Origin: Palleronia sp. LCG004
GTDB taxonomy: Bacteria; Pseudomonadota; Alphaproteobacteria; Rhodobacterales; Rhodobacteraceae
Assembly: GCF_032931615.1 (NCBI RefSeq)
Contig: NZ_CP136759.1
Span: forward strand, 248,001 to 312,000
Length of the DNA: 64,000 nucleotides
Direction of reading: 5' to 3'
Made by a program: the position numbers and the translations under genes. Each line of letters starts with the position of its first letter. The stretch's first letter is position 1. This document shows positions 6,014-21,343 of this stretch, in pieces. The notes under the pieces were generated by a model. The model saw only the letters and a list, made by a program, of their open reading frames with translations, ran no database searches and was not told where the DNA came from.

Positions 6014-7477
6014 GTGAAACCATCGAATGCTCTCTCGCCTGCAGTTCTTGCCGTGCTGCTGATCGGCACGCCCGTATTTGCACAGGAAGATGGTTCGGGC
6101 GGCGATGGCGATGGTCAGGAGCAGCAGGGCGGTCAGGGATCCCAAGGCGGATCCGAGGGCGGCGATGCCCCGGTGATCGATCTGCCGCTGCTCGGCGAAG
6201 TGCCGGTGCCGGGTTTCCTTGCAGGACTTTTCGGCATCGAAAGCGGAGAGGGCGACGACCAGCAACAGGAGCAGGGACCCCCAGCAGTCGTCTATTCCGT
6301 GGCGGAGGTACAGTCGGTGGCCGAGACCTTCCGCTTTCTGGGTCGTATCCAGCCGATCGAGCGGGTCGACGTGCGTGCCCGCGTTCCGGGTTTCATAGAC
6401 GAGGTCGCCTTTCGCGGCGGCCAGCAGGTCGAGGAGGGTGATCTGCTGTTCCAGATCGAGACGGCCCAGTACGACGCGGCGCTGCAATCCGCGCGCGCGC
6501 AGGAGGAAAGCGCCCGGGCCCAGTTCACCACGGCCGAGCGGGCGCTGGCCCGTGCCGAGGAACTGCGGGAGAGCGGAACGGTCTCGCAATCGCAACTCGA
6601 CGATGCCGTCGCCGCGTTCGAGACGGCCCGCGGGACGGTCCTGCAAGCAGAGGCGGCCGTTCGCCAGGCCGAACTCGACCTCGATTATACGTCGATCACG
6701 GCACCCATTTCGGGCCGCATGTCCGAGCCTTATCAGACCCAGGGAAATTACGTGAGCGCGAGCAGCAACGCCATTGCCGAGCTCACCCAGATGGATCCGG
6801 TCTGGGGCGTCTTCGCCCTGGGCGAGAACCGTCTCATCGAATGGCAACAGCTGGGTATCGGCGGGACGGACCTCGCCCCGATCGCCGCGTCGGGCGAGGA
6901 AGGGGCATCGGCCGGAGGCGAAGCCTCACCGGGCGGAGACGGCGCGGTGGAGGTCGATCCCCCGCGACCCGACGGCGATCTCGATGTCGCGAACGACATG
7001 TCGGAAGAAGGGGCCGATCCCGAGGATTACGACCTCCTCCTCCTGTTGCCCGACGGATCCAGTTACGCCGACGAGGGCGAATTGTCCTTCGTCGGCAACA
7101 GCGTCGATCCGCAGACCGGGACGGTCGACGTGCGGGTCGAGTTCAGCAATCCATCGGGCATCCTCTTGCCCAACCAGAACGTCACGCTGGTCGTGACCGA
7201 GGCCGATCCACCGCGAATGCCGGTCATTCCCCAATCGGCGGTCCTGCTCGCCCGCGAGGGCCGCTCGGTCTGGGTCGTCCGGGATGACGACACGGCGACG
7301 CAGATCCCGGTCGAGGTGACGTCGGTCGACGTTCCGGGCCAGGTCGCAGTGACGCGCGGGCTCGATGGTGGAGAGCGGGTGATCGTGCGCGGAACGATGG
7401 CGCTCGAGGAGGGGGCAAAGGTCGACCCAAGGCAATCTAGTGACAATTCCGGTCTTCCCGGGGCATCCGGTCAATGA
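6014..7477 (+). CDS. RND efflux periplasmic adaptor (AcrA/MexA family lipidless adaptor)
   Basis: This is a 487-residue membrane-fusion protein joining the inner-membrane RND pump to an outer-membrane channel. It starts at GTG with GGAAGG 7 nt upstream. Residues 1-24 are a Sec signal peptide without a lipobox Cys. Lipoyl/barrel-sandwich halves lie near 95-150 and 215-250, separated by the alpha-hairpin (AQEESARAQFTTAERALARAEEL). Beta-barrel and membrane-proximal domains follow. Two insertions are unusual: a Gly/Gln/Asp-rich segment at about 25-85, and an acidic Gly-rich segment near 295-345 in the beta-barrel region. It overlaps the pump gene by ATGA. No outer-membrane factor gene is present, so a shared TolC is presumed. 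Confidence 0.93.
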   Translation: MKPSNALSPAVLAVLLIGTPVFAQEDGSGGDGDGQEQQGGQGSQGGSEGGDAPVIDLPLLGEVPVPGFLAGLFGIESGEGDDQQQEQGPPAVVYSVAEVQSVAETFRFLGRIQPIERVDVRARVPGFIDEVAFRGGQQVEEGDLLFQIETAQYDAALQSARAQEESARAQFTTAERALARAEELRESGTVSQSQLDDAVAAFETARGTVLQAEAAVRQAELDLDYTSITAPISGRMSEPYQTQGNYVSASSNAIAELTQMDPVWGVFALGENRLIEWQQLGIGGTDLAPIAASGEEGASAGGEASPGGDGAVEVDPPRPDGDLDVANDMSEEGADPEDYDLLLLLPDGSSYADEGELSFVGNSVDPQTGTVDVRVEFSNPSGILLPNQNVTLVVTEADPPRMPVIPQSAVLLAREGRSVWVVRDDDTATQIPVEVTSVDVPGQVAVTRGLDGGERVIVRGTMALEEGAKVDPRQSSDNSGLPGASGQ

Positions 7478-10400
7478 TCTCGAAGACCTTCATCGAGCGT
7501 CCGCGTCTTTCGGCCGTCATTTCGCTCGTCCTCGTCATCGCGGGACTTCTGGCGATGTTCGCCCTGCCGATCACGCAATATCCCAACATCTCCCCGCCAA
7601 CGGTGCAGGTATCGGCATCCTATCCCGGGGCAGACAGCACGGTTCTGGCCGAAACGGTCGGCGCACCGCTGGAGCGCGCGATCAACGGGGTCGACGGCAT
7701 GATCTACATGTCGTCATCGTCTTCGAACCAGGGCACCTATTCACTGTCGATCACCTTCGAGATCGGGACCGATCCCGACATCGCGCAGGTGAACGTCTCG
7801 AACCGGGTGCAACTCGCGACCTCGCAGCTTCCGACATCCGTGGTCGATCAGGGCGTGACGGTCACGACGCAATCGCCGAACTTCCTCGCCGCGGTCGCAT
7901 TCGTGGTGGATGACGACAGCGACGTCTCGATCATCGAGGCTGCCAACTACGTCTCGACCAACGTTACGACCAGTCTGCAGCGCATCAACGGGGTCGGCAA
8001 CGCACAGGTGCTCGGCCCCGCGAACTACGCGCTGAGGATCTGGACCGATCCCGGCAAGATGACGGCGCTCGACCTGTCGCCGGACGACATCTCCGAAGCG
8101 GTGCGCGGTCAGAACCTCGCCGCGGCGCTGGGCCAGGTCGGCGGCTCGCCCGCTGTCGAGGGTCAGTCCCTCGTCTATACCGTGACTTCCAGGGGCCGGC
8201 TGTCCGAGGTCGAGGAATTCGAGGACATCGTCATCCGTTCGGGCGGGAATGGCGGTCTCGTGAGGCTCAGGGACGTGGCGCGGGTGGAGCTCGGCGCGGA
8301 GGATTATTCGACGAACTCGTTTCTCGGCGATCAGCCGAGCCTTTCGATCCAGCTCAACCAGGCTCCGGGTGCGAACGGGCTCAACGTCATGGGGCAGGTC
8401 CGATCCGAGCTCGAGCGGATCGCGCCGACCTTTCCCGAGGGGCTCAGCTACGAGATCATCTACGACAGCACCGATTACGTCCGCGTCACCATCGAGGAGA
8501 TCGTGAAGACACTGCTCATCACCGCGGGGATCATCGTCCTCGTGGTCTATGTCTTCCTTCAGGGTATCCGCTCCACGATCATTCCGCTGATCGCAATTCC
8601 CGTCTCGCTGATTGGAACCTTTGCCTTCCTGCTGGCCGTCGGATTTTCCATCAACGTGATCACCCTCCTGGCACTCATTCTCGCCATCGGCCTCGTGGTC
8701 GACGATGCGATCCTCGTGGTCGAGAACGCCCGCCGCGTAATGGAAGAAACCGACAAGACCGGACGTGAGGCCGTCATCCATGCCATGGGCGAGATCACGG
8801 GGCCGATCATTTCGACCACGCTCGTGCTTTTGGCCGTTTTCGTTCCGACGACGCTGCTGCCCGGCCTTTCCGGTCAGCTTTACCGGCAGTTCGGGCTGAC
8901 GCTTTCGATCTCCGTCGTTCTGTCCTCGGTGGTGGCGCTGACGCTGACCCCGGCGCTTTGCGGATGGCTGCTGCAACCCCACGGGCAGGGCAGCAGGATA
9001 TTCAAACCCTTTAACTGGGGGCTCGAAAAAGCCCGGAACGGCTATTCACGCGTTGTGAAGTTCTTCGTGACGAAGGGTTTGCTCACGCTTGCCGCGCTCG
9101 TCGCGGCGATCGGCCTCGCGCTCTGGTCATACACCACCCTTCCCGGAGAGCTCGTCCCCGCCGAGGATCAGGGTGCCATCCTGGTCGACGTGTCCCTGCC
9201 GGACGGTGCCTCGCTCGAACGTACGACCGAAGCCATGCGGGAAATCGGCGACATCATCCAGAACACCGATGGTGTCGAGGCGGTGATCCAGGTCGCCGGC
9301 TTCAGCTTTCTCGGCGGATCGCGCTCTTCGGTGGGCATCGCGATCGCGACGCTCAAGCCATGGGGCGAACGACGCGACCTCTTCGCCATTCTCGGTCAGC
9401 TCAACGGCCGGTTCCAGACAATTCCGGGCGTTCAGGTTTCGGCCTTTCCGCCCCCCTCGATCCCCGGCACGGGCAGCGTCGGTGGCGTCAGTTTCGAGGT
9501 GCTGGCGACCGAAGGGCAATCGCCCGAAGAAGTCGCGCAGGTCGCGCGTTCCTTCGTGCAGGCCGCGAACCAGCGTCCCGAAATCGGCAATGTCCGCACC
9601 ACGTTCTCGGCCAGTGTGCCGCGCATCTTCGTCGATGTGGACAGTGATCGCGCCGCGCAACTGGGCCTTACCGTCGCCGACATCTACAACACGCTCGGAC
9701 AGACGCTCGGGGCGGGCTTCATCAACCAGTTCGTCTACGAGGGGCGCGTCTATCAGGTGCGCGTGCAGGCCGATGCGCCCTTCCGTTCGACGCCCGAGGA
9801 CATCTCGGACCTCTACGTGCAGAATGCCACGGGCGAAGAGGTCTCGATCGGTGATCTGACCGATCTCAGAACCGAGTTCGGGCCCTACATCCTGCCGCGC
9901 TTCAATCTCTTCACCACGGCGTCGATCTCGGGAAATCCTGCCGAGGGGGCATCGACCGGCGATGCGCTCACGGCACTCGAAGAGGTCGCGCAGGAGACGC
10001 TTCCGAGCGGATATACCTATGCCTTCTCAGGCGCGTCCTATCAGCAGCAGCAGGCGGGCGGAGCCACGATCTACGCATTCATCTTCGCCTTCGTGTTCGC
10101 CTATCTCTTCCTCGTCGCGCAGTTCGAGAACTGGCTTCAGCCATTGGCGGTCATGCTTTCGGTGATGGTTGCGATGGCGGGGGCCGCGACGACGCTGCTC
10201 ATCACGGGGTTCACGGCAAACCTCTATGCGCAGATCGGCATGGTGATGCTGGTGGGGCTTGCCGCCAAGAACGCGATCCTGATCGTGGAGTTCGCCAAGC
10301 TGCGCCATGCCGAGGGAATGCCGATCACCGAGGCGGCGATCTTCGGTGCGCGGCAGCGGTACCGCGCCGTGTTAATGACCGCACTCGCCTTCGTCTTCGG

Positions 10401-10635
10401 GATGTTGCCACTGGTCTTCGCTTCCGGTGCCGGTGCCGCGTCGCGCAACGCCATCGGTACCGCGGCGCTGGGCGGTATGATCGCCGCGACCTTCCTCGGA
10501 ATTCTCATCATTCCCGCGCTTTACGCGATATTCGAGCGGCTGGGCGAGGGGGCCAAGGGCGTGCTCTGGGGCCGGGAGGACTATACCGAGGACGAGCTGG
10601 AGAACGTGCCCGAAGAGGCCAGGCTCTCCTCGTGA
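7474..10635 (+). CDS. RND multidrug efflux transporter, HAE1 family
   Basis: This is a 1053-residue AcrB/MexB-type proton-driven pump of the inner membrane with twelve transmembrane segments and two large periplasmic loops. The family hallmark in TM4, GLVVDDAILVVEN, carries the two proton-relay Asp residues. TM10 contains the relay Lys (GLAAKNAILIVEFAK). The N-terminus (MISKTFIERPRLSAVISLVL) and the length are standard. Translation starts at the ATG of the ATGA overlap with the adaptor, so the two proteins are coupled. Substrates cannot be read from sequence. Its 3' end meets the convergent purine transporter operon with one base between the stop codons. Confidence 0.96.
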   Translation: MISKTFIERPRLSAVISLVLVIAGLLAMFALPITQYPNISPPTVQVSASYPGADSTVLAETVGAPLERAINGVDGMIYMSSSSSNQGTYSLSITFEIGTDPDIAQVNVSNRVQLATSQLPTSVVDQGVTVTTQSPNFLAAVAFVVDDDSDVSIIEAANYVSTNVTTSLQRINGVGNAQVLGPANYALRIWTDPGKMTALDLSPDDISEAVRGQNLAAALGQVGGSPAVEGQSLVYTVTSRGRLSEVEEFEDIVIRSGGNGGLVRLRDVARVELGAEDYSTNSFLGDQPSLSIQLNQAPGANGLNVMGQVRSELERIAPTFPEGLSYEIIYDSTDYVRVTIEEIVKTLLITAGIIVLVVYVFLQGIRSTIIPLIAIPVSLIGTFAFLLAVGFSINVITLLALILAIGLVVDDAILVVENARRVMEETDKTGREAVIHAMGEITGPIISTTLVLLAVFVPTTLLPGLSGQLYRQFGLTLSISVVLSSVVALTLTPALCGWLLQPHGQGSRIFKPFNWGLEKARNGYSRVVKFFVTKGLLTLAALVAAIGLALWSYTTLPGELVPAEDQGAILVDVSLPDGASLERTTEAMREIGDIIQNTDGVEAVIQVAGFSFLGGSRSSVGIAIATLKPWGERRDLFAILGQLNGRFQTIPGVQVSAFPPPSIPGTGSVGGVSFEVLATEGQSPEEVAQVARSFVQAANQRPEIGNVRTTFSASVPRIFVDVDSDRAAQLGLTVADIYNTLGQTLGAGFINQFVYEGRVYQVRVQADAPFRSTPEDISDLYVQNATGEEVSIGDLTDLRTEFGPYILPRFNLFTTASISGNPAEGASTGDALTALEEVAQETLPSGYTYAFSGASYQQQQAGGATIYAFIFAFVFAYLFLVAQFENWLQPLAVMLSVMVAMAGAATTLLITGFTANLYAQIGMVMLVGLAAKNAILIVEFAKLRHAEGMPITEAAIFGARQRYRAVLMTALAFVFGMLPLVFASGAGAASRNAIGTAALGGMIAATFLGILIIPALYAIFERLGEGAKGVLWGREDYTEDELENVPEEARLSS

Positions 10636-10636
10636 T

Positions 10637-11548
10637 CTAGCGCCCGAAGGGTTCGCCCAGCGATGCCACGGAATTGAGCCGCATCCGCCGCCGGTTCGAC
10701 GAGATGAGGGCAAGTACGACGATCGTCGCGAGGTAGGGAAGGGCCGCGAGTGCCTGGCTCGGGATCGGGACGCCCGTCGCCTGCACGACCAGCTCGCCGA
10801 TCGAAAGCGCCCCGAAGAGGATCGCGCCCATCGCGACGCGTCCGGTCTGCCACGTGCCGAACACCACGAGCGCGACCGCGATCCAGCCGCGCCCGGCGAT
10901 CATCCCGTCGGCCCAGAGCGGCGTGTAGACCGTCGAGGCATACGCCCCGCCGAGCCCGGCAAGTGCGCCGCCGAAGGCGATGCAGGCCGCCCGCACCGCA
11001 AGGACGGGCGTGCCGATTGCTCTCGCGGCCTCGGGGTTTTCGCCCACTGCCCGGATCCGCCAGCCGAGCCGGGTGGCGCGGAATGTCCATGCCATCACGA
11101 CCGCGAGGGTGAGCGAGGCCCATACGACGACATCCTGCGTGAAGAGCGGGCCGATCACCGGAAGATCCGAAAGGACCGGCAGTTCGATCCGCGGGATGCC
11201 GCGCACCGTGAGGCTTTCGTAGGGTCGCCCGAACAGCGCCGACAGCCCGCCCGCGAGGATCCCGATCGCGAGGCCGGCCGCCACCTGATTGGCGCGGAAC
11301 ATGAGCACGGGGATCGCGAAGACCAGCGCCGCGGCCATGCCCGCACCTGCCCCCGCGAGAAAGGCCCATGCGTGGCCGCCGGTGTGATAGGTCACGATGA
11401 AGGCGATCGCCGCACCGAGCGCCATCATCCCCTCGACCCCGAGATTGAGAACGCCCGAGCGTTCCACAACGAGTTCGCCCAGGGCCGCGAGAAGCAGCGG
11501 CGTCGCGGCGGCGAGCGTGCCCGCGAGGATGAAAGCCAGCGCACTCAT
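10637..11548 (-). CDS. ABC transporter permease 2, BMP/nucleoside type
   Basis: This is a 303-residue inner-membrane permease of the BPD_transp_2 family (RbsC-like; NupQ/YufQ relatives). It has about eight to ten hydrophobic segments and the family motif GVEGMMALGAAIAF near residue 40. It is the last gene of the eight-gene minus-strand operon and overlaps permease 1 by ATGA (11545-11548). Together with permease 1 and the ATPase it forms the channel of a nucleoside/purine importer. The substrate is inferred from the substrate-binding protein family and the co-transcribed deaminase. Confidence 0.9.
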   Translation of the reverse strand: MSALAFILAGTLAAATPLLLAALGELVVERSGVLNLGVEGMMALGAAIAFIVTYHTGGHAWAFLAGAGAGMAAALVFAIPVLMFRANQVAAGLAIGILAGGLSALFGRPYESLTVRGIPRIELPVLSDLPVIGPLFTQDVVVWASLTLAVVMAWTFRATRLGWRIRAVGENPEAARAIGTPVLAVRAACIAFGGALAGLGGAYASTVYTPLWADGMIAGRGWIAVALVVFGTWQTGRVAMGAILFGALSIGELVVQATGVPIPSQALAALPYLATIVVLALISSNRRRMRLNSVASLGEPFGR

Positions 11549-12612
11549 GCGGACGACCCGCGCAGGGGCACGATCCTGTAGCGCACCAGCGTCACGGCGA
11601 TGAGGTAGAAGATCAGAAGCAGCCCCTGAACCACGCGCACGGCCGCTTGGGGCAGGTCGGCGAAGACGGTCGCGTTGTCACCGCCGATATAGATCGCTGA
11701 CATCACGAAGGATGACACGAGGATGCCCAACGGATGCAATCCGCCCAGATAGGCGACGATGATCGCCGCGAAGCCGTAACCTTGGCTCACCGAGCGCTGA
11801 AGCTGGCCCAAAGGCCCAGCGACTTCGGCGGCTCCGGCGAGCCCCGCAGCGGCACCCGAAACGAGGAGCGAGATCCAGACCCCCCGCGCGGCCGAAAATC
11901 CCGCATATCCCGCCGCACGTGGCGCGGTGCCCGTGACGATCAGCCTGTATCCCGCAAGACTTTTCTGCATCAGGACATAGGCCGCGCCGCTCGCGACAAG
12001 CGCAAAGAGAAGCGAGATATTGACGCGTGTCCCCGGCAGCAGCGCTGGCAGGAGCGCCTCGAACGGGAACATCACCGTCTGCGGAAAATTGAAGCCGGCC
12101 GGATCCTTCCATGGCCCCAGCAAAAGCCAGTTGAGCAGCTGCACCGCGACCAGCGACAGCATCAGCGTCACGAGGATCTCGTTCGCATTGAGCCGCGTGC
12201 GCCAGAAGGCGGCGATCCCGGCCCACAGGGCACCCCCCGCCATGCCCATCGCCATCATCGCGACCCACAGGACCGGCGAGGTGGCACCCGGGGCCATGAC
12301 CGGCAGGATCGAGGCGAAGATCGCACCGAGGATCAACTGCCCCTCGGCCCCGATGTTGAAGACCCGGGCACGAAATCCGATGGCAAGGCCCTGCGCGATC
12401 AGCAGGAGCGGCCCCATCTTCAGCAGGACTTCGGAGAAGTCGTACCAATTGGTGAAAGGGCTCGCCGCCAGGGTCCAGAGCGCGTGGCCCGCAGGCACGC
12501 CGAGCGCGGCAAAGAGGGCCCACGACACGATCGCAGTCGCCCCGAGGGCCAGAACCGGTGCGAGACATGCCATGGCAAGCGAGGCGCGGTCCCGGCGGAC
12601 GAGCTCAAACAC
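11545..12612 (-). CDS. ABC transporter permease 1, BMP/nucleoside type
   Basis: This is a 355-residue inner-membrane permease of the same BPD_transp_2 family (NupP/YufP relatives). The GAEGQLILGAIFAS motif near residue 90 is the counterpart of that in permease 2. I prefer the GTG at 12612, which overlaps the ATPase stop by 8 nt and has GGAGG 6 nt upstream; a GTG at 12633 is the longer alternative. The tight overlaps on both sides indicate translational coupling and a heterodimeric permease. Confidence 0.9.
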   Translation of the reverse strand: MFELVRRDRASLAMACLAPVLALGATAIVSWALFAALGVPAGHALWTLAASPFTNWYDFSEVLLKMGPLLLIAQGLAIGFRARVFNIGAEGQLILGAIFASILPVMAPGATSPVLWVAMMAMGMAGGALWAGIAAFWRTRLNANEILVTLMLSLVAVQLLNWLLLGPWKDPAGFNFPQTVMFPFEALLPALLPGTRVNISLLFALVASGAAYVLMQKSLAGYRLIVTGTAPRAAGYAGFSAARGVWISLLVSGAAAGLAGAAEVAGPLGQLQRSVSQGYGFAAIIVAYLGGLHPLGILVSSFVMSAIYIGGDNATVFADLPQAAVRVVQGLLLIFYLIAVTLVRYRIVPLRGSSA

Positions 12613-14140
12613 GGGCGTCCTCCGTTCGCGCACCGATCATCCATTCACCGATCTCCTCGGCGCTGGTCTCGGCAACGGGGAGCGAGGGCGAAAGCCTGCC
12701 GTCCCTGAGCACATGGAGCCGGTCGCAGATCTCGAACAGTTCCTCGATCTCTTCCGAGATGACGAGGACGGCGCAGCCGGCGTTGCGCATCAGGACCAGG
12801 CGTCGCCGGATGGCGGCGGCGGCCGCCACGTCGACGCCCCAGGTGGGCTGTTGCACGAAGAGGATGCGGGGCGAGAGCATGATCTCGCGGCCCACCACGA
12901 ATTTCTGCAGGTTGCCCCCCGAGAGCGCGCCGGCCTCGGCCTCGACGCCGGGGGTGCGGACATCGAAATCCGCGATGCAATCCTCGGCGAACCGGTTCGC
13001 GGCAGCGCGGTCGACCATGCCGCCGCGTGCAAGCCCGCGATCATGGGCCGTCAAGATGGCATTCTGCCAGAGCGCCATATCAGGTACCGCCCCGCGACCG
13101 AGCCGTTCTTCGGGAACGAAGGCAAGGCCCCGCGCGCGGCGTGCGGCGGCTCCGAGATGTCCCACGGGCTGTCCGTCGATCGCGATCGCGCCCGAACGTG
13201 CGCGCGACAATACCCGTTCGCCCGAAATGACGGCGGCGAGGTCCGCCTGGCCATTGCCGGAAATCCCGGCGATGCCGACGATCTCGCCCGACCGGATCGA
13301 CAGATCGATGCCCGACAGGTCAGGCGCGTATGGGTCCGAGCTGGACACGTCGAGCGCCGAAAGCTCGAGCCTCGCTTCACCGGGAACGCCGGCCTCCACG
13401 GGCAGCGGCGCAGGCATCTCGCGACCGATCATCATCGTGGCGAGGCTGCGCGTGTCGGTCTGTCGCGGATCTGCGTGACCCGTCACCTGCCCATCGCGGA
13501 GGATCGTCGCAGTGTCGCAAAGTGCGCGGATCTCGTCGAGCTTGTGCGAGATGAAGAGGATCGACACGCCCCGGTCACGCAATGCGCGCAGCGTCGCGAA
13601 AAGCCGTTCGACCATCTGCGGCGGCAGGACCGCCGTGGGTTCGTCAAGGATCAGCAGCTTGGGATCGAGCATCAGGCAGCGCAGGATCTCGACCCGCTGG
13701 CGTTCGCCGACCGACAGCGCATGGACATGCGCGCGCGGATCGACGTCGAGCCCGTATTGCCGCCCCAGATCGCCGATCCGCGCGGCGAGATCGCGCGCGC
13801 GTCCCGGTACGACCAGCGCCACGTTCTCGAGCACGCTCAGCGTATCGAAGAGCGAGAAATGCTGGAACACCATGCCGATACCCAGGGCGCGTGCCTCGGC
13901 GGGCGATGCAGGCGCGACCGTCCGCCCCTGCCATTCGATGCGGCCGGCATCGGGCATCTCGATGCCGTAAATCATTTTCATCAGCGTCGACTTGCCCGCG
14001 CCGTTCTCGCCCAGGATCGCATGGATGGAGCGTGGCATGACCGCGAGGTCCACGCCGCGATTGGCATGGACGGAGCCGTAGCTCTTCGTGACCCCTTCGA
14101 GTCTCAGAAGAGGGGCCGTGCTCCGTGCCTCGGCGGTCAT
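12605..14140 (-). CDS. ABC transporter ATP-binding protein, two fused nucleotide-binding domains
   Basis: The 511-residue ATPase carries two tandem ABC domains, as in sugar and nucleoside (RbsA/NupO-type) importers. The first domain has a canonical Walker A (GENGAGKST, near 45), signature LSVGERQRVEI (near 145) and Walker B LLILDEPTA. The second has a degenerate Walker A region (GISGNGQAD, near 290) and an intact signature LSGGNLQKFVVG. Its Walker B reads ILFVQQPTWGVD, with Gln in place of the usual catalytic-region Glu. Asymmetric sites of this type are normal in the family. It lies 8 nt downstream of the substrate-binding protein gene. Confidence 0.93.
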   Translation of the reverse strand: MTAEARSTAPLLRLEGVTKSYGSVHANRGVDLAVMPRSIHAILGENGAGKSTLMKMIYGIEMPDAGRIEWQGRTVAPASPAEARALGIGMVFQHFSLFDTLSVLENVALVVPGRARDLAARIGDLGRQYGLDVDPRAHVHALSVGERQRVEILRCLMLDPKLLILDEPTAVLPPQMVERLFATLRALRDRGVSILFISHKLDEIRALCDTATILRDGQVTGHADPRQTDTRSLATMMIGREMPAPLPVEAGVPGEARLELSALDVSSSDPYAPDLSGIDLSIRSGEIVGIAGISGNGQADLAAVISGERVLSRARSGAIAIDGQPVGHLGAAARRARGLAFVPEERLGRGAVPDMALWQNAILTAHDRGLARGGMVDRAAANRFAEDCIADFDVRTPGVEAEAGALSGGNLQKFVVGREIMLSPRILFVQQPTWGVDVAAAAAIRRRLVLMRNAGCAVLVISEEIEELFEICDRLHVLRDGRLSPSLPVAETSAEEIGEWMIGARTEDARV

Positions 14141-14148
14141 GCGCAGGC

Positions 14149-15231
14149 TCAGTTCGGCAGTGGCGTCGTCACGCCTTGGACATGCCAGTCCATTCCCTGG
14201 ATCTCGGCATCGGTCATCGTCGTCCCGTCTGGGACGCGGGTCTCGCCGGACTGATCGACGAGCGGACCCGAAAGCGGGTTGAACGTGCCGGATGCGATCT
14301 CGGACAGGCGCTCTTCGATCTGTGCCTTCACGTCATCGGGGATCGCAGGGTTCCAGTCATCGACATAGACGACCTCGTCGGACATTCCGAGATAATGGTT
14401 GGCACCCTCAAAACTGCCGTCGAGATGCGCCTGCGCCTGCGCGGTGAAGAACGGCTCCCAATCGGTGCCGACGACACCGAGATAATATTCGGGCGCGTAG
14501 GATTTCATCGAGGAATTGAGGTTGAACGCATAGACGCCTTCCTCTTCGGCAAGCGAGATGACCGACGGCGTATCCTGCGCGTTCGAGAAGAGGACGTCGC
14601 AATCCTGGCTGATGAGCGCCTGGGCGGCCTCCCGCTCGGACGCCGGGTCGAACCAGGAATTGACCCAGACGACGACCACCTCGATGTCGGGGTTGATCGC
14701 CTGTGCGCCGAGCGTGAAGGCGTTGACCGAGGTGATGAGCTCGGGGATCGCGAAGGCCGAGACCGATCCGATCTTGCCGGTCTGCGACAGGGCGGCGGCC
14801 GCCATGCCCATGAGATAGGTGCCCTGGTAGTATTTCGCGGCGAAGGGCGAGAAGTTCTGCGCGACCTGGTAGCCCGATGCGTGAAGGATCGACACGTCGG
14901 GATAGCGGCGGGCCAATTGCAATCCGCCGTTCATGTAGCCGAAGGATCCGAGGATCACGAAGCCCGCCCCGTTCGCGGCCGCGCGCTGCATGATGCGGTC
15001 GGCATCGGGACCCTCGGCGATGTTCTCGAGCACCGAAAGCTCGCCGCCCACGGTTTCGGCTGTCGCGCTCGCCGCCTCGACGAGCGTATGCGACCAGCCC
15101 ACATCGGCGGTGGGCGAGGGCGTGACGAGCGCCATCTGAAGGCTTTCCTGCGCGGAAAGCTTCATCGGAAGCGCACTGGCGAGGCCGGCGGCGGAGGCGG
15201 TGCCGAGAAAGGCGCGGCGGGTCTGGGTCAT
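14149..15231 (-). CDS. BMP-family (PnrA/Med) periplasmic substrate-binding protein
   Basis: This is a 360-residue periplasmic receptor of the basic membrane protein family, whose characterised members (Treponema PnrA, Bacillus BmpA/NupN) bind purine nucleosides. The N-terminus TRRAFLGTASAAG is a twin-arginine signal, so export is probably by Tat, with cleavage after LSA-Q near residue 28. It is not a lipoprotein. The ligand-binding fold shows the family segments DVGWSHT, VILGSFGY and GTYLMGMAAA. The gene lies 16 nt after the amidohydrolase and just before the ATPase. A purine-type ligand is inferred from the family and from the deaminase next door. Confidence 0.92.
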   Translation of the reverse strand: MTQTRRAFLGTASAAGLASALPMKLSAQESLQMALVTPSPTADVGWSHTLVEAASATAETVGGELSVLENIAEGPDADRIMQRAAANGAGFVILGSFGYMNGGLQLARRYPDVSILHASGYQVAQNFSPFAAKYYQGTYLMGMAAAALSQTGKIGSVSAFAIPELITSVNAFTLGAQAINPDIEVVVVWVNSWFDPASEREAAQALISQDCDVLFSNAQDTPSVISLAEEEGVYAFNLNSSMKSYAPEYYLGVVGTDWEPFFTAQAQAHLDGSFEGANHYLGMSDEVVYVDDWNPAIPDDVKAQIEERLSEIASGTFNPLSGPLVDQSGETRVPDGTTMTDAEIQGMDWHVQGVTTPLPN

Positions 15232-15247
15232 GGTCTCTTTCCTGTCA

Positions 15248-16612
15248 TCAGGCGCCGAGGGCGCGGGTCATCGCGGTTTCGGCCGCCCGGGCGAGCGCGC
15301 CTTCATCGAGGCCGGGGAACTCGCCGTTCTCCCAGACGATGCGGCCGTCGATCATCGTAAGGTCCACGGCCCTGCCGATCCCGACCTTTGCCGGCAGCGA
15401 GACGGGATCGTGGCGCGTGCCGACATATTCGAGACCGGACGTGTCGATCGCGAAGAGATCGGCCGCCATGCCGGGCGCGATCCGGCCGAGCTCAGGCCGC
15501 GCGAGCAGATCCGCGCCACCCCTCGTCGCATAGCGCAGAAAGGCGGATGGCGGCGGTACGGGATCGCGGCGCGATTTCGCGGCAAGGGACTGAAGCATGT
15601 AGGCGGAATGGATGCAGTGCATCAGGTTCGAGTTGTCATTGGATGCCGCACCATCCGCGCCGAGGCCGATCGTGATACCGGCAGCCTCCATCGCCGGGAT
15701 GTCGGTGATCTCCGCCCCGACGAGATAGACTGGCTCGGGACAGTGCGAGACGCCGGTTCCGCTCGCGGCAAGCTTCGCGATCTCGTCCCGTGTCAGTTCC
15801 CAGCAATGCGCGAGCCATGTCTCGCGGCCGAGAAAATCGAGGCTCTCCAGATAGTCGATCGTTCGCATGCCATGACGCGTCAGGATGGCATCGCTTTCGC
15901 CCTCGCCGGCATGGGTATGGAGCCGCGCGCCCGTTTCGCGGGCAAGCGTCACCGAGCTTTCGAAGGTCTCGCGTCGGCAGTTGACAGGCTGACAGGGCGC
16001 GATCGCGATCTGAACCATCGCGAAGGGGTCGGGGTCGTGATAGGAGGAGATGAGCCGTGCGCAATCGGCTATGAACTCGTCCGTCGTCTCGCACAGGGCG
16101 TCGGGGATCGTGCTGCCCTCGGATTTCGGAAGGGTATTGCCGCCGCGGCCCGCGACGAAGCGCATGCCCATCAACCTCGCTGCCTCGATCTGGCGGTCGA
16201 TCAGGTTTTTGCCGGCATGGTCGGGAAATGCGTATTGGTGGTCGAATGCCGTGGTGCAGCCGTGCTTGATCAATTCGGCCATGGTCACGACCGAGGAATG
16301 ATAGAAGCATGCCTCGTCGAGGCGTGCGAAGATCGGATAGATCGTGTCGAGCCACTCGATCAGGCTCAGTCGGGTCCAGTCGAGATCTACCCGGTTGCGG
16401 ACGAAGGACTGGAAGAAATGGTGATGCGTGTTGACGAGGCCGGGATAGAGGAACAGGTCGCGCGCGTCGATCACGCGCGTGCCCTGCGGAACCTCGAGGT
16501 TCGGGCCGATCGCCTCGATGCGGTTGCCGCTCGTCAGTAGATCGAGGTCGCGCTGCGGAACGGCGTCGGCATCGGTGACGATCGCGGCGCAATTTCGGAA
16601 CAGGACGCTCAT
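15248..16612 (-). CDS. 8-oxoguanine deaminase-like amidohydrolase
   Basis: This is a 454-residue metal-dependent hydrolase of the AtzB/TrzN/8-oxoguanine deaminase branch (cog0402). The metal-binding motif NTHHHFFQ is at 61-68. Further ligands are expected in HTHAGEGES, LAHCWEL and LGADGAASND. The segments LIEWLDTIYPIFARL and CTTAFDHQYAFP recall 8-oxoguanine deaminases such as PA0142, which convert 8-oxoguanine to urate and ammonia in the cytoplasm. The start is the ATG in an ATGA overlap with the GST. Position between a Rieske oxygenase system and a purine importer supports a purine substrate, but guanine, isocytosine or a methylated analogue are alternatives. Confidence 0.8.
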   Translation of the reverse strand: MSVLFRNCAAIVTDADAVPQRDLDLLTSGNRIEAIGPNLEVPQGTRVIDARDLFLYPGLVNTHHHFFQSFVRNRVDLDWTRLSLIEWLDTIYPIFARLDEACFYHSSVVTMAELIKHGCTTAFDHQYAFPDHAGKNLIDRQIEAARLMGMRFVAGRGGNTLPKSEGSTIPDALCETTDEFIADCARLISSYHDPDPFAMVQIAIAPCQPVNCRRETFESSVTLARETGARLHTHAGEGESDAILTRHGMRTIDYLESLDFLGRETWLAHCWELTRDEIAKLAASGTGVSHCPEPVYLVGAEITDIPAMEAAGITIGLGADGAASNDNSNLMHCIHSAYMLQSLAAKSRRDPVPPPSAFLRYATRGGADLLARPELGRIAPGMAADLFAIDTSGLEYVGTRHDPVSLPAKVGIGRAVDLTMIDGRIVWENGEFPGLDEGALARAAETAMTRALGA

Positions 16613-17262
16613 TCGATGGCGGTTTCCATCTCGGGCTCGGGCAAAAGCTCGTGCAGGCGATGGATCCCGGGCATTTCGACGAAGCCCGGGAGGGCGCGGA
16701 CGGCGCGGGTCCAGAGCCTGATCGACGGGTAGGGTGCGAGGGTAATCCCGCCATCGGGGGCGAGCATCACATGCGGGAAACAGGCGATATCGGCGATCGT
16801 CGGCCCGTCACCCACCAGGAATGTCGCACCCTCCATCCGTCGTTCCGACAATGCCGCCTCGAGTTGCCTGAGGCAGGCGCGACCGCCGGTCTGCGCGGTC
16901 GCGAGCGATCCCGGAACGCCGAGCATGTCGATGGACCGCGCAAGGCCCGCGGTCGCGTTCAGCCGTTCCGCGAAGGAAAGCCAGTTCTGCAGATGCGCGG
17001 CATCGGCCGGCCCCTCGGCGAGCCAGCCGCCCGAGCGCCGGGCGAGATAGGTCAGGATCGCGGCGCTTTCGGTCAGGACCAGATCGCCATCCTGCAGGAT
17101 CGGCAACGTGCCCGCGGGATTGAGCCCGATGCAGGGTTCGGAAAGATGCTCCCGCCCGGGATAGAGATCGACGGCATGCAGGCTCAGCCGCTCACCGCAG
17201 AGCGCCGCCATCAGCCGGACCTTGTAGCAATTCGGCGAAAGGACCCAGTCGTACAGGATCAT
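16609..17262 (-). CDS. Glutathione S-transferase family protein (NdmE-like context)
   Basis: The 217-residue protein has an N-terminal thioredoxin-like domain (1-76; SPNCYKVRL at the glutathione site, NPAGTLPIL with the cis-Pro, and TESAAILTYLA) and an all-helical C-terminal domain (FLVGDGPTIADIACFP). It overlaps the oxygenase gene upstream and the deaminase gene downstream by ATGA. In Pseudomonas putida CBB5 the GST homologue NdmE is needed for the NdmCDE caffeine N7-demethylase complex. The same neighbourhood here (Rieske-less oxygenase plus GST) suggests a structural or assembly role rather than general detoxification. That is inference. Confidence 0.88.
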   Translation of the reverse strand: MILYDWVLSPNCYKVRLMAALCGERLSLHAVDLYPGREHLSEPCIGLNPAGTLPILQDGDLVLTESAAILTYLARRSGGWLAEGPADAAHLQNWLSFAERLNATAGLARSIDMLGVPGSLATAQTGGRACLRQLEAALSERRMEGATFLVGDGPTIADIACFPHVMLAPDGGITLAPYPSIRLWTRAVRALPGFVEMPGIHRLHELLPEPEMETAIE

Positions 17263-18089
17263 GCCGCCACCAACTGCGCGCCGTAGATGTAGCCATGCGA
17301 CTTGAGCCAGCGCCGGTACGCGACCGAGGTCATGTCTGCACGTGTCGGGATCTCCAGCCCGGGATCGAGCGGCAGGAGCGCGGGCACTTGATTCTCGAGG
17401 ATCGAGCGGTCCTGAACGAAAATCATCTGCTGGAAAGCGACGAGATCGGCCTGCGGCGATACGTCGTCGAAAAGCGCCATCCATGGCCAGACGTCGCAGG
17501 TCGTCTCGGTCACGGGCTGCACGAAGATCGCGATCACGTCCCATTCGCCGGGACGCGGCGGACAGGTCTTGTAAAGCACCGAGGAGGTCGGCGCGGGCAC
17601 GCGGTACATGTATTCCGTGGTGGTCCCGCCGCTTGCCGATTTCGCGGCCTGTGGCTGATAGAACTCGACCTTGGTTGCCCAGACTTCGTCTTCTTCCTCG
17701 CGGACCTCGGCCTTGTAGCGGGCAACCTCGGTATGCGGCTCGGAACCGAGGATGTCGGTATGGACAAATGGAAAATGCGCGATGTCGAGGAAGTTCTCGA
17801 CCGCGCGCAGGGGCGAGCAGGCGACGCGCACGCGACCGCAGGGGACGAAGCGGCGACCGGGCTGGCGTGCTTCGGGAATGTCGAAGATCGGCCGGTTCGG
17901 CGTGCCGAGCGAGATCCAGAGATGATGGTAGGCCTCCGTCACAGGCAAGTCGCGACCGTCCTCGGCCTCGGCGCGGACGGTTCCGTCGGCGTCGCGCCAG
18001 ACGCGGACGGGCGTCTCCATCAGGATCGTGTTTCGTGGGGCGGGGCCGAGATCCGCAAGCATCGCGACCGGGTACCATTGATCTTTCAT
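17259..18089 (-). CDS. Rieske-less non-heme iron oxygenase catalytic subunit (VanA/NdmA class)
   Basis: The 276-residue protein matches only the C-terminal catalytic half of Rieske mono-oxygenases. The mononuclear iron site is visible as N99-x2-D102-x2-H105-x4-H110 (ENFLDIAHFPFVH) with the third ligand at D227 in FVQDRSILENQ. Asp102 would be the residue that normally receives electrons from the Rieske cluster of a neighbouring subunit. The tail SVAYRRWLK is typical of vanillate and caffeine demethylases. No CxH/CxxH Rieske motif is present. NdmC, the caffeine N7-demethylase, has the same Rieske-less layout and similar length. The gene overlaps the Rieske-domain gene by ATGA, so the two are likely made together. 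Confidence 0.85.
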   Translation of the reverse strand: MKDQWYPVAMLADLGPAPRNTILMETPVRVWRDADGTVRAEAEDGRDLPVTEAYHHLWISLGTPNRPIFDIPEARQPGRRFVPCGRVRVACSPLRAVENFLDIAHFPFVHTDILGSEPHTEVARYKAEVREEEDEVWATKVEFYQPQAAKSASGGTTTEYMYRVPAPTSSVLYKTCPPRPGEWDVIAIFVQPVTETTCDVWPWMALFDDVSPQADLVAFQQMIFVQDRSILENQVPALLPLDPGLEIPTRADMTSVAYRRWLKSHGYIYGAQLVAA

Positions 18090-18691
18090 GCAGCGGCCTC
18101 CGCCTCGAAGGTGCGGCGCAGTTGCTCGAGGCGACGGCTCGCCGCGCGGGCATCGGTATCGGGCGAGACAAGCGCATGGACCATCGACGTTCCCGCGTCG
18201 ATCGGTTGGATCAAGGCAAAAAGGCCCTCGCCCAAGGCGACAGGCCACCCCTCGCCGAGATCTCCGGCGGGACGCTCGACCGGAAGCGACCGCAGGGGGT
18301 GCAGATCTCCGGGCAGGGCGGGCGGTTCGGGGGCGGATGGGTCGGCTGCGATCCAGACCACGCCATCGCGTTCGGCCACCGAAAAGGTCGGCACCGCAAT
18401 GGATGTGGGCGGCTCGAGGCCGGGATGGGCGGGGATCTTGCGGCAGGTTCCGGAGCCGTCGTAGCGCCATCCGTGATAGATGCAGCTCAGCATTTCCCCG
18501 CGAACGAAACCGTGGGACAGTCGCATGCCGCGATGCGGGCAGCGGTCCTGCCAGGCAGCAATCCGGCCCGATGCGCTACGCCAGAGGGCGATCTCGTGCG
18601 CGCCGCATCGCGTGGGGATCACGGTGGCGGGGGGCAGGTCCTGAGACAATGCCGCAGGCTGCCAGAGAGAGATGTCTATATCGCTGGTCAA
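18086..18691 (-). CDS. Stand-alone Rieske [2Fe-2S] protein
   Basis: The 201-residue protein contains a complete Rieske domain of oxygenase type: C51-x-H53-x16-C70-x2-H73 (CPHRGMRL...CIYHGW), followed by the usual IPAHPG segment. Residues 115-201 are an extra region without a recognisable domain, ending in a charged helix. It appears to be the missing N-terminal half of the oxygenase encoded next, either split off or acting as an electron-transfer subunit. Start is TTG at 18691 with GGAAGG 7 nt upstream; no in-frame ATG precedes the Rieske motif. It is the first gene of the eight-gene operon. No flavin reductase gene is in the operon. Confidence 0.87.
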   Translation of the reverse strand: MTSDIDISLWQPAALSQDLPPATVIPTRCGAHEIALWRSASGRIAAWQDRCPHRGMRLSHGFVRGEMLSCIYHGWRYDGSGTCRKIPAHPGLEPPTSIAVPTFSVAERDGVVWIAADPSAPEPPALPGDLHPLRSLPVERPAGDLGEGWPVALGEGLFALIQPIDAGTSMVHALVSPDTDARAASRRLEQLRRTFEAEAAA

Positions 18692-18771
18692 TGGACGGCC
18701 TTCCGATCCGGTCGGGCACGATCCCTAGCGCATCTGGCGGCGGGCGGAACAGGAAATGTCGTCTTGTCGAC

Positions 18772-18791
18772 GCATTTGGCGGCAAAAATGC
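18772..18791. promoter_or_regulatory. Candidate operator upstream of the purine/Rieske operon
   Basis: GCATTT and AAATGC form an inverted repeat with an 8-nt spacer, about 80 nt upstream of the first operon gene, in the 166-bp gap before the acylphosphatase-like gene. No convincing -35/-10 pair could be fixed and no regulator gene is adjacent, so function is uncertain. Confidence 0.3.
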
Positions 18792-18857
18792 CTAAGAGAT
18801 GTGCAAAAACTGAATGCTTTCGCCCGCTTTATCAGCTTGGCCCAGCGACTTCGGTCG

Positions 18858-19112
18858 TCACTCGGTGAGAATCCGTCGGTCGATGCGCCGAACGTCGACC
18901 GTGATGGGGCCGAGGCTGCATCCCATCTCCATCGCGTCGAGCATGTCGGGTGCGCCCTCGGCCGAGAATGTCACGGTGTTGCCTTGAGCCTCGATCGGTC
19001 CGCAGAAAATACCCAGCTTGCGGGCGTGTCGGTCGATCCAGTCAGGGAAGGTCGCGTGATCGACGCGCCCTTCGATGACGAAGCGTTCTGATCTGAGATC
19101 AGTCGAACTCAT
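18858..19112 (-). CDS. Degenerate acylphosphatase-like protein
   Basis: The 84-residue product has the length and pattern of an acylphosphatase (IEGRV near 14, a helix, a central strand, ML...GC..GP.TVDV). The catalytic loop is not conserved: the usual GRVQGVGFR reads GRVDHATFP, losing the phosphate-binding Arg, and the catalytic Asn position of the N-x-x-D-G turn is altered. It is therefore probably not an active acylphosphatase. It begins within the treY stop (ATGA) and forms the last gene of the treZ-treY operon. Its role, perhaps a binding or regulatory domain, is unknown. Confidence 0.65.
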   Translation of the reverse strand: MSSTDLRSERFVIEGRVDHATFPDWIDRHARKLGIFCGPIEAQGNTVTFSAEGAPDMLDAMEMGCSLGPITVDVRRIDRRILTE

Positions 19113-21343
19113 GCCGGTGTCTTGAGTCTGATAACCGTCCGGATCTCGTCCGAACCGCCTTCCCAGACGGTATTGCCAGTTCCGTCGGCATTCCCCAGCG
19201 TGACTGTCAGTACCGTATCGCCATGCCGACGGGTCAAGCGGCGCGTCTCGTCATCCCAAAGCGCCTCACCATTGGAGAAGAGATCGGGATGCGTGTTCCT
19301 GAGCTCGAGCAGCGTGGTCAACAGGCGGAACTTCTCGCTCGACGGATCGTCCCCACGGGGAAGGGAGGCGAGCATGTCCCAGTCGGGTGCACGGCGGTTG
19401 TCCGGGTCGGTCAGTTGCAACAGCATGCCCTCGCCGCCCTGATAGATATCGGGCATGCCGGGCAGGGTGCAGCGCAGGGCGAGCTCGCGCAGGCTCAGTG
19501 CCGCTCCGATCCGGACGAGGCGTTCGAGCCCATCGGGCCTCCGCGCGTCCCAATCCGCAAGCAGGCGTCTGACCCAGTCCTGCATCCGCGCCTCGCGCTC
19601 CTCGTCGGGCGCGGTCCAATAACTGACCTCCTTGCCCTCTCGCAAAGCCTTGACCAGATGGTCGGCCACGCGGTCATGTGCCTCGGGCTCGTCCCAGAGC
19701 GCGAGCGCGACCTGGAAGGCATAGAAAAGCCGGTTCGGTTCGAGTTGCTCATCGCCGGCAAGCGCCCTTTCCCAGAGCTCTGCCACCGCGTAGGGCGCGT
19801 GGGTCATCGCGGCGATCCGCGCGCGCGCGTCCTCGGAACGCTTTGTATCGTGGCTCGACCCGAGGTTCAGGGCGTGTGGAAACCGCGCCATCCTCTCATC
19901 GAGGAACGATTGCACCTCGCCTGCACGGGGCAGGGGATGTCCGGGCTCGGCACCGACCTCGTTCGCGGCAAGATATCGGTTGAACCTGAAACCGGCGGTA
20001 TCCTCGTGCGCCTTGGCAATGAGGGCTCCGGTCACCTGCTCGATCCTGACGGCGAGCGCGCGCGACGCGTTCGTATCGCTCGCGAGAATGCGCGCGACGA
20101 TCCAGTCGATCACGTCGGCGGACCGGACATGCTCTGCCGCGCGGACAGCGCTGTCCTCCCACAGGGCGCGATCGATATCTGCGCCGGTATCGCCGATATA
20201 GGATCTGTATTGCGGGAAGGCGGTCAGAAGCTCGGTCAGCGCCTCGCGCAGCATTTCGGGGCCAGCCATGAAGCCGTCCTCCTCCGCCGCCCGTTCGGCG
20301 AGGCCGATGAGCTGCCGGAGTTCCGCGGCAAGTTCGTCGGTCAGGATCTCGCGTTTGGCTTCCTCCACGAAGGGGTGGAAATCTCCTTCGATCCCGGACG
20401 CCTCGCGCCAGAGCGTGTCGATCCGCTCCATGCCGGCAGGCTCGGTCAGAAGGCGCGCGATGATCGTGGCGGCGTCATACCCGGTCGAACCGGCGATGGG
20501 CCAGTCGCGCAAGGCTTCGCCATCGACCAGAATCTTCTCGATCCAGACGGGAACGCTTTCGGGAAGTGCCTCGCGCAGCCGGCGCAGATAACCGCCCGGA
20601 TCGACGAGTCCGTCGACATGATCGACGCGGAGCCCCTGGATCAGGTCCGACCGCGCCAGATCGAGGACGGTGGCATGGGTCCGCTCGAAAATCTCGGGAT
20701 CCTCGATCCTGACGCCGACGAGACCGGTGACCGAAAAGAAGCGGCGATGGGTGATGCTGTCGCGCTCCATCTGCCACGGAAGAAGCCGCCAGGATTGAGC
20801 CTCGTGCAGCGCTGTCGCCGCCGTCTCGTCGAGCGTGCCGTTCCCCATCGCACTGCCGGGGGCGAGCGGAATGCGCAGATCGCCCACGACAAGCGCGTCA
20901 TCCTCGACCGAAACCTCACCCCTTTCGGCCAGCACCGGCAGAGGATCGGTGAGCCATGGCAGGGCAAGCGGTCCGGCCTGCCAGTCGATGTCGAAGGTTC
21001 GGGCGTGTTCGCTTTTCTCGCCATGGCGCAGCACGTCGACGAGCCACGGGGTGTCGAGCCCGAAGGCCATGTGGTTCGGCACGATGTCGAGGATGATGGC
21101 GAGCCCGCGTGCCTTCGCCTCGGCGTTCAGGCGCTCGAACCCTTCCCGACCACCAAGGCTTTCGTCGATGGTGGTGGGATCGGTCACATCGTATCCGTGG
21201 GTCGATCCCGGCGCGGCGGTCAGGATCGGCGCGAGGTAGAGATGGCTGACGCCCAGTCCCGCGATATGATCGAGCCGCGAGACGATCGTGTCGAAATCGA
21301 CGCCCTCGCGCAGCTGGATGCGATAGCTTGCAGTATGGATCAT
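19109..21343 (-). CDS. treY: Maltooligosyl trehalose synthase
   Basis: TreY isomerises the reducing-end alpha-1,4 bond of maltodextrins to alpha,alpha-1,1, giving maltooligosyl trehalose. The 744-residue GH13 protein starts MIHTASYRIQLREGVDF, typical for the family. Conserved boxes are GSTHGYDVTDP, ILDIVPNHMA, LRVDHVDGLVDP (nucleophile Asp) and WIEKIL (acid Glu). The C-terminal ALRCTLPGMPDIYQGGE-type region is present. The ATG lies in an ATGA overlap with treZ. Together they give trehalose from glycogen-like polymers, a common compatible solute in salt-exposed bacteria. No treX debranching enzyme is adjacent. Confidence 0.95.
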   Translation of the reverse strand: MIHTASYRIQLREGVDFDTIVSRLDHIAGLGVSHLYLAPILTAAPGSTHGYDVTDPTTIDESLGGREGFERLNAEAKARGLAIILDIVPNHMAFGLDTPWLVDVLRHGEKSEHARTFDIDWQAGPLALPWLTDPLPVLAERGEVSVEDDALVVGDLRIPLAPGSAMGNGTLDETAATALHEAQSWRLLPWQMERDSITHRRFFSVTGLVGVRIEDPEIFERTHATVLDLARSDLIQGLRVDHVDGLVDPGGYLRRLREALPESVPVWIEKILVDGEALRDWPIAGSTGYDAATIIARLLTEPAGMERIDTLWREASGIEGDFHPFVEEAKREILTDELAAELRQLIGLAERAAEEDGFMAGPEMLREALTELLTAFPQYRSYIGDTGADIDRALWEDSAVRAAEHVRSADVIDWIVARILASDTNASRALAVRIEQVTGALIAKAHEDTAGFRFNRYLAANEVGAEPGHPLPRAGEVQSFLDERMARFPHALNLGSSHDTKRSEDARARIAAMTHAPYAVAELWERALAGDEQLEPNRLFYAFQVALALWDEPEAHDRVADHLVKALREGKEVSYWTAPDEEREARMQDWVRRLLADWDARRPDGLERLVRIGAALSLRELALRCTLPGMPDIYQGGEGMLLQLTDPDNRRAPDWDMLASLPRGDDPSSEKFRLLTTLLELRNTHPDLFSNGEALWDDETRRLTRRHGDTVLTVTLGNADGTGNTVWEGGSDEIRTVIRLKTPA

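What the first reader, a model, noticed from the sequence alone, without database searches (positions are those of the whole stretch)
10637..18691. Eight-gene operon joining a split Rieske oxygenase, a GST, an 8-oxoguanine-deaminase-like enzyme and a purine importer
Seen: eight minus-strand genes, six of the seven junctions overlapping or within 8 nt, five of them ATGA-type. Known: BMP-type ABC systems import purine nucleosides, and 8-oxoguanine deaminases make urate. Rieske VanA/NdmA enzymes demethylate aromatic and methylxanthine substrates, and NdmE is a GST. Inferred: the operon takes up a purine (N-methylated, such as 7-methylguanine or a methylxanthine, or plain guanine), oxidises it at a methyl group or at C8, and deaminates the product. 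Such a route would bypass guanine deaminase and xanthine dehydrogenase.
Basis: partly seen in the sequence, partly recalled or inferred. Interest (0 to 1): 0.85.

Follow-up and report, generated by a model that had tools for sequence, protein, structure and literature searches.

The report
Operon for breaking down methylated guanines
This is a conserved nine-gene bacterial operon that most likely imports methyl-modified guanine bases, such as those left over from RNA, and strips off their methyl and amino groups to make ordinary xanthine; it gives a likely physiological home to a recently discovered enzyme whose natural role was unknown.

Summary
All eight named genes stand in order in 41 of 47 fetched loci of alpha- and gammaproteobacteria. 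Gene 4 does not pass as an 8-oxoguanine deaminase. It belongs with NdmH, the N2,N2-dimethylguanine hydrolase described in 2026: all 13 residues named for the Pleomorphomonas oryzae enzyme fit a P. oryzae protein whose gene sits inside this same operon. The authors wrote that its physiological context was still being studied. The split Rieske pair plus GST is homologous to NdmD(N-terminus)/NdmC/NdmE, the N7-demethylase of 7-methylxanthine, but the Rieske protein stands alone and no reductase gene is in the operon. The binding protein is closest to guanine-binding AtzT. Best reading: uptake of N-methylated guanines, oxidative removal of a ring N-methyl (probably N7), hydrolysis at N2, product xanthine. 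A bypass of xanthine dehydrogenase is not supported; 15 of 15 carriers searched have it. Shown: genes, orthology, context. Inferred: reaction, substrate, N7 specificity, role of the acylphosphatase-like protein.

The parts
18858..19112 (-). g0: acylphosphatase-fold protein, 84 aa, without the conserved catalytic stretches; conserved ninth gene of the system
18086..18691 (-). g1: stand-alone Rieske [2Fe-2S] protein, 201 aa (CPH...CIYH), plus a variable C-terminal tail
   Evidence: Pfam Rieske 78.3 bits; 35-46% to NdmD-type proteins; cluster ligands invariant in 20 sequences
17259..18089 (-). g2: NdmC-like catalytic chain, 276 aa, cluster-binding part of the Rieske domain absent; 2-His-1-Asp site kept (D102 bridging, H105, H110, D227)
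   Evidence: VanA_C 83.2 bits; 43-45% to NdmC-type proteins; columns; tree; fold
16609..17262 (-). g3: glutathione S-transferase-like protein, NdmE-like, 217 aa
   Evidence: Pfam GST_N_2 and others; 37-40% to NdmE-type proteins
15248..16612 (-). g4: NdmH-type N2,N2-dimethylguanine hydrolase (amidohydrolase), 454 aa
   Evidence: 68.95% over 438 aa to the gene of P. oryzae P0136; N159, C207, Q208, N211 at the rbNdmH positions, offset 0
14149..15231 (-). g5: Bmp/PnrA-type binding protein, AtzT-like, 360 aa
   Evidence: best solved relative AtzT (6pi5), E 1.2e-80; six of nine guanine-pocket residues kept
12605..14140 (-). g6: ABC transporter ATP-binding protein, 511 aa
   Evidence: Pfam ABC_tran
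11545..12633 (-). g7: ABC permease, 362 aa (GTG start; a second GTG lies at 12612)
   Evidence: Pfam BPD_transp_2; start region
10637..11548 (-). g8: ABC permease, 303 aa
   Evidence: Pfam BPD_transp_2

Best explanation
A catabolic/salvage operon for N-methylated guanine bases. The Bmp-type ABC importer (g5-g8) brings in a methylated guanine. An NdmCDE-like split Rieske N-demethylase, made of catalytic chain g2, stand-alone Rieske electron donor g1 and GST-like scaffold g3, with the acylphosphatase-fold protein g0 as a further, probably structural, subunit, oxidises a ring N-methyl group, most likely N7, to release formaldehyde. NdmH (g4) hydrolyses the N2 substituent (dimethylamine, methylamine or ammonia). 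The product xanthine goes to the cell's xanthine dehydrogenase. Electrons come from an unlinked housekeeping reductase. Shown: genes, orthology, conserved context, intact active-site residues, and that the operon's Pleomorphomonas orthologue of g4 matches the characterised N2,N2-dimethylguanine hydrolase. Inferred: the Rieske reaction and its position, the order of steps, the exact substrate, and the role of g0.
For: g4 = NdmH: 13 of 13 named residues of poNdmH match P0136 ('amidohydrolase [Pleomorphomonas oryzae]') at the printed positions; P0136 is 100% identical to a gene in genome G160, between g3 and g5 of a complete g0-g8 operon, and the next of the three amidohydrolase matches in G160 is 28% identical. 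Paper sections read. g1/g2/g3 are homologous to NdmD/NdmC/NdmE-type proteins; 32 Rieske-less chains group together with NdmC-type chains inside; D102, H105, H110, D227 in 32 of 32, the full set of Rieske ligands in 0 of 32. NdmCDE removes the N7-methyl of 7-methylxanthine and needs its GST (passages). g5: nearest solved relative AtzT binds guanine at 110 nM; six of nine pocket positions are invariant over 45 operon proteins. Related operons with GuaD in place of NdmH (L032, L051), and GuaD-type genes beside the catalytic chains of L109, L110 and L115, point to guanine derivatives.
Against: No activity was measured for any protein of this window. The N7 assignment rests on 43-45% identity to NdmC-type proteins, which does not fix regiospecificity; the CBB5 proteins themselves were not in hand. 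NdmH enzymes are promiscuous: poNdmH (then called AtzB_Hom_Pleo) also turned over compound 5, the 8-oxoguanine deaminase substrate; I saw no test on N7-methylated bases in the parts read. No reductase in the operon; the one PF00970 match of the genome is GbcB-like and beside a GbcA-like gene. The TIGR03105 family (taken, from memory, as a marker of methylamine assimilation) is over cut-off in only 3 of 9 carriers and not in the own genome. The accession of poNdmH was not seen; identity with P0136 rests on species, residue numbering and lack of a close paralogue. L005, L030 and L024 lack g4, so hydrolase and oxygenase are separable.
Confidence: 0.66

Rival explanations
1. Guanine C8 oxidation: the Rieske pair makes 8-oxoguanine, which g4 deaminates to urate, bypassing guanine deaminase and xanthine dehydrogenase.
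For: N7 and C8 are neighbours; HpxD, annotated as a Mo-independent xanthine hydroxylase, is a distant full-length relative; poNdmH also turned over the 8-oxoguanine deaminase substrate; one related operon (L109) holds an 8-oxoguanine deaminase over cut-off.
Against: g4 is below the 8-oxoguanine deaminase cut-off and has the NdmH residue set; HpxD groups with full-length oxygenases, outside the split group; XDH over cut-off in 15 of 15 carriers and GuaD in the own genome make a bypass redundant.
Confidence: 0.1
2. The Rieske system acts at the exocyclic N2: it turns N2-methylguanine or N2,N2-dimethylguanine into guanine, and NdmH is a parallel hydrolytic route for the same bases.
For: Fits the related operons in which GuaD replaces NdmH, for example L032 with a catalytic chain 67% identical to g2.
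Against: NdmH removes the whole dimethylamino group in one step, so a second N2 enzyme in 41 of 47 loci would be redundant; the catalytic chain groups with NdmC-type (N7) chains.
Confidence: 0.14
3. A plain methylxanthine (7-methylxanthine/caffeine-type) demethylation operon, with g4 deaminating incidental guanine.
For: Homology to NdmCDE; similar split sets on a Komagataeibacter plasmid from kombucha tea.
Against: Xanthines have no 2-amino group, so an NdmH gene kept in 41 of 47 loci would have no function; the guanine-pocket Glu of AtzT is E in 45 of 45 operon binding proteins but S or D in two related systems.
Confidence: 0.06
4. A triazine (hydroxyatrazine-type) degradation operon, as some sources annotate g4 homologues.
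For: Source names 'hydroxyatrazine ethylaminohydrolase'; AtzT and AtzB kinship.
Against: g4 has CQNN, the set of the NdmH enzymes, not the SSII of AtzB; the operon is spread over alpha- and gammaproteobacteria with divergent sequences.
Confidence: 0.02

Closest known systems
NdmCDE, N7-demethylase of 7-methylxanthine in Pseudomonas putida CBB5 (PMC4408171, passages seen)
   Same: Catalytic chain without Rieske cluster, separate Rieske domain supplied in trans, GST-like partner; 35-46% identity of the components to NdmC/D/E-type proteins
   Different: Rieske protein is a free 201-aa protein instead of being fused to the reductase; no reductase in the operon; an acylphosphatase-fold gene added; linked to NdmH and a Bmp importer; substrate unknown
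NdmH, N2,N2-dimethylguanine hydrolase (PMC13054789; sections 7, 8, 11 and passages seen)
   Same: g4: all four CQNN residues at rbNdmH positions; about 69% to the P. oryzae protein; same operon around the P. oryzae gene
   Different: Not assayed here; the paper's main text has no match for operon, gene cluster, transporter or Rieske
AtzT, guanine-binding periplasmic protein (6pi5; PMC6834077, passages seen)
   Same: g5 best PDB match; S97, F98, T139, E165, W194, N218 kept
   Different: Y45 is W, N169 is S, N220 is D in the window protein
Acylphosphatase family
   Different: Catalytic stretches not conserved; linked to a Rieske gene in 46 of 46 testable loci
HpxD Rieske xanthine hydroxylase
   Same: Rieske oxygenase annotated as acting on a purine
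   Different: Single chain with its own cluster; outside the split group

Membership tests
NdmCDE (N7-demethylase complex) | Catalytic chain lacks the Rieske cluster but keeps 2-His-1-Asp iron site and bridging Asp | tested here: met
   Asp102, His105, His110, Asp227 in 32 of 32 split chains; the full set of Rieske ligands in none
NdmCDE (N7-demethylase complex) | GST-like partner encoded alongside | tested here: met
   g3, 37-40% to NdmE-type proteins
NdmCDE (N7-demethylase complex) | Rieske domain fused to the reductase (NdmD) | tested here: not met
   g1 is a 201-aa stand-alone Rieske protein; no reductase among g0-g8
NdmCDE (N7-demethylase complex) | Removes the N7-methyl of 7-methylxanthine | not testable with these tools
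   Needs purified proteins
NdmH (N2,N2-dimethylguanine hydrolase) | CQNN residue set plus catalytic Q/E/H/D | tested here: met
   four of four CQNN in the window protein and 13 of 13 named residues in the L022 orthologue; 13 of 13 in P0136. The nine other residues were not counted one by one in the window protein
NdmH (N2,N2-dimethylguanine hydrolase) | Orthologue of an assayed NdmH | tested here: met
   68.95% to the gene of P0136 and same operon; P0136 taken as poNdmH by species and numbering, accession not seen
NdmH (N2,N2-dimethylguanine hydrolase) | Hydrolyses N2,N2-dimethylguanine at 1e5-1e6 per M per s | not testable with these tools
   Assay
8-oxoguanine deaminase (NF006055) | Score over the curated cut-off of 532 bits | tested here: not met
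   393.9 bits; comparators 580.6, 673.2, 645.7
Bmp/PnrA-type purine-binding proteins (AtzT type) | Bmp domain and guanine-pocket residues | tested here: met
   Pfam Bmp 135.4 bits; six of nine AtzT pocket residues identical
Acylphosphatase (enzyme) | Fold | tested here: met
Acylphosphatase (enzyme) | Catalytic Arg and Asn | tested here: not met
   Alignment with 1v3z and A1; which residues are catalytic is recalled, from no call
Acylphosphatase (enzyme) | Pfam PF00708 over its gathering score | tested here: not met
   21.5 bits against 22.5

The most novel reading that the evidence does not exclude
The operon encodes a complete route for multiply methylated guanines, in the boldest form N2,N2,7-trimethylguanine, the base of the trimethylguanosine cap of eukaryotic small RNAs: import, N7-demethylation by a four-subunit Rieske oxygenase (catalytic chain, free Rieske protein, GST-like scaffold and a pseudo-acylphosphatase that my one literature search did not find tied to Rieske enzymes), then removal of dimethylamine by NdmH to give xanthine. 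The acylphosphatase-fold protein stands in for the reductase fusion of NdmD, docking the free Rieske protein to a general reductase or to the catalytic chain.
Probability: 0.27. Interest if true: 0.85.

Novelty: new variant of a known kind. Interest (0 to 1): 0.7.

Why it matters
It places a 2026 enzyme of unstated physiological role (NdmH) in a conserved operon and so predicts its pathway and partner enzymes. It extends the NdmCDE oddity, a Rieske oxygenase with its cluster on another chain and a GST, to a widespread family with the Rieske protein free and with an acylphosphatase-fold partner. It suggests that RNA-derived methylated guanines are a nutrient for rhizosphere and marine bacteria, which is directly testable, and helps to re-annotate genes now called 'hydroxyatrazine ethylaminohydrolase' or 'aromatic ring-hydroxylating dioxygenase'.

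Tried and rejected
Tried without result: Rfam on 10000-20000 (none at E up to 1, so no RNA of a family in that library); sigma-70 promoter scan of 18600-19200 (none); a search for other conserved flanking genes in the loci (by their coordinates the larger clusters are mostly antisense or shadow ORFs of the operon; they were not checked one by one). Papers: no held paper has acylphosphatase, Rieske, glutathione S-transferase and operon together; none has at least two of 8-oxoguanine deaminase, Rieske and 7-methylguanine; of 11 papers with 'dimethylguanine hydrolase' or 'NdmH' 8 were listed and only PMC13054789 is relevant; the listings (20 of 68; 12 of 24; 1 of 1) showed no title on bacterial 7-methylguanine or trimethylguanine catabolism. 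These were listings only, and nothing wider is claimed. Passages of PMC6186785 report that two 8-oxoguanine-deaminase-like enzymes also convert guanine to xanthine, a reminder that this group is promiscuous.

Rejected: 8-oxoguanine deaminase as the main role of g4; bypass of XDH/GuaD; triazine role. A Fisher test on co-occurrence of g0 and the catalytic chain is not used: I sorted strong from weak hits by hand after seeing them. In the 149-genome survey 33 genomes hit g2 at E up to 1e-3, but I judge only nine to hold split chains (G000, G088, G104, G094, G116, G046, G078, G033, G124); the other 24 are low-scoring and were not checked one by one. In the g0 survey 21 of 149 genomes hit; eight lie beside Rieske/GST genes; of the other 13, four were looked at (L155, L157, L158, L159: no Rieske or GST match in about 3.2 kb each) and nine were not. 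In the profile scan, 17 of 24 loci hit g0; the seven misses are L046 (cut), L053-L056 (NdmD-type), and L112 and L113; L113 has a Rieske match, so g0 is not universal.
Full report
What is there. The window holds eight minus-strand genes at the stated coordinates. Four junctions are 4-nt ATGA overlaps (g1/g2, g2/g3, g3/g4, g7/g8), g6/g7 overlaps by 29 or 8 nt depending on the GTG start, g5/g6 are 8 nt and g4/g5 16 nt apart. Pfam gives Rieske; VanA_C without a Rieske match; GST; amidohydrolase; Bmp; ABC_tran; and two BPD_transp_2. The downstream end meets a convergent plus-strand ORF that ends at 10635.

The deaminase is NdmH-type. PMC13054789 (sections 7, 8 and 11) describes N2,N2-dimethylguanine hydrolases of Pleomorphomonas oryzae, Haliea and a Rhodobacteraceae bacterium (kcat/KM 1e5-1e6, 150-3600 times that for guanine) and says that their physiological context is being studied. 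All 13 residues named for poNdmH are found, at the printed positions, in the g4 of a Pleomorphomonas MAG operon (L022) and in P0136, named by its source as from P. oryzae. The four CQNN positions of rbNdmH fit the window protein with no offset, and the four residues with the same spacing are in 42 of 44 loci with a g4 hit outside the own genome; the misses are L032 (GuaD-type) and L035 (contig end) (offsets of up to 12 allowed). P0136 is identical to a gene in genome G160 inside a full g0-g8 operon, and three more Pleomorphomonas genomes show the same set, though g3 is only partly matched in L143. Five of 14 genomes of that genus hold such a gene at 91-100%. g4 is 68.95% identical to the P0136 gene. 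It scores 394 bits against the 8-oxoguanine deaminase cut-off of 532. Against a strict reading: poNdmH, under its earlier name, also turned over the 8-oxoguanine deaminase substrate (PMC12828455, part 1 of 3 of section 5), although PMC13054789 says that N2,N2-dimethylguanine was, besides guanine, the only natural compound fully degraded.

The importer. g5 is closest to AtzT, which was crystallised with guanine (KD 110 nM; PMC6834077 passages). Of nine pocket residues six are identical in g5. Across 45 operon binding proteins W, S, F, E, W and D at AtzT positions 45, 97, 98, 165, 194 and 220 are invariant, and N218 is kept in 44 of 45, the exception being L032 by the aligned stretch; positions 139 and 169 vary. 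In the R. tumorigenes and S. meliloti systems E165 is S and D.

Context elsewhere. The eight genes are in order in 41 of 47 loci; the exceptions are given in the observation check. In R. tumorigenes and Tateyamaria a guanine deaminase takes the place of NdmH; GuaD-type genes also sit by catalytic chains in L109, L110 and L115, and L109 further holds an 8-oxoguanine deaminase over cut-off. In L109 and L110 two catalytic chains stand by one g0-Rieske-GST set, which suggests that a shared Rieske donor is one reason for the split. XDH is over cut-off in 15 of 15 carriers, the own genome has GuaD, and its XDH gene lies by a second Bmp-type transporter (L108).

How it most likely works (inference). 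Methylated guanines are imported; the Rieske complex removes a ring methyl, probably N7 by kinship with NdmC; NdmH hydrolyses the 2-amino substituent; xanthine joins the normal route. A base that needs both enzymes is N2,N2,7-trimethylguanine; 7-methylguanine and N2,N2-dimethylguanine would each need one of them, 7-methylguanine with a deaminase besides. The order of steps is open. Against a full use of the released dimethylamine: TIGR03105, which I take from memory as its marker, is over cut-off in 3 of 9 carriers and not in the own genome.

Verdict. A new variant of the NdmCDE kind, in an operon that supplies a likely physiological setting for NdmH. Interest 0.7.

Noticed in passing
L109 and L110 (G046, G116): Two Rieske-less catalytic chains around one acylphosphatase-like/Rieske/GST set, with different amidohydrolases (GuaD-type, 8-oxoguanine deaminase, PRK07228-type): one electron donor may serve several demethylases.
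   Followed up: partly
L052 (Komagataeibacter nataicola plasmid pKNA08): Kombucha isolate plasmid with two split Rieske/GST sets, a VanB-type reductase and two full-length oxygenases, with transposase genes around; possibly tea methylxanthine demethylation.
   Followed up: no
L146 (Leptolyngbya boryana plasmid pLBX): A single-chain Rieske oxygenase gene follows Bmp-type ABC transporter genes; possible unsplit counterpart.
   Followed up: no
L050 (Qingshengfaniella plasmid): The operon is followed by a YcaQ-family DNA glycosylase gene and, nearby, allantoinase AllB.
   Followed up: no
window 7474-10635 (+): A 1053-aa ORF that looks like an RND efflux pump subunit (recalled, not searched) ends 1 nt from the operon's end, convergent.
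   Followed up: no
window 19109-21481 (-): An ORF that looks like maltooligosyltrehalose synthase (recalled, not searched) overlaps the acylphosphatase-like gene by 4 nt, so that gene may be read from an upstream promoter here.
   Followed up: no
L108 (G000:C1:2187001-2206000): The own xanthine dehydrogenase gene lies beside a second Bmp-type ABC transporter.
   Followed up: partly
G066 (same genus as the window genome): No g2 match at E up to 1e-3 and only a weak acylphosphatase-like match, so the operon is patchy within the genus.
   Followed up: no
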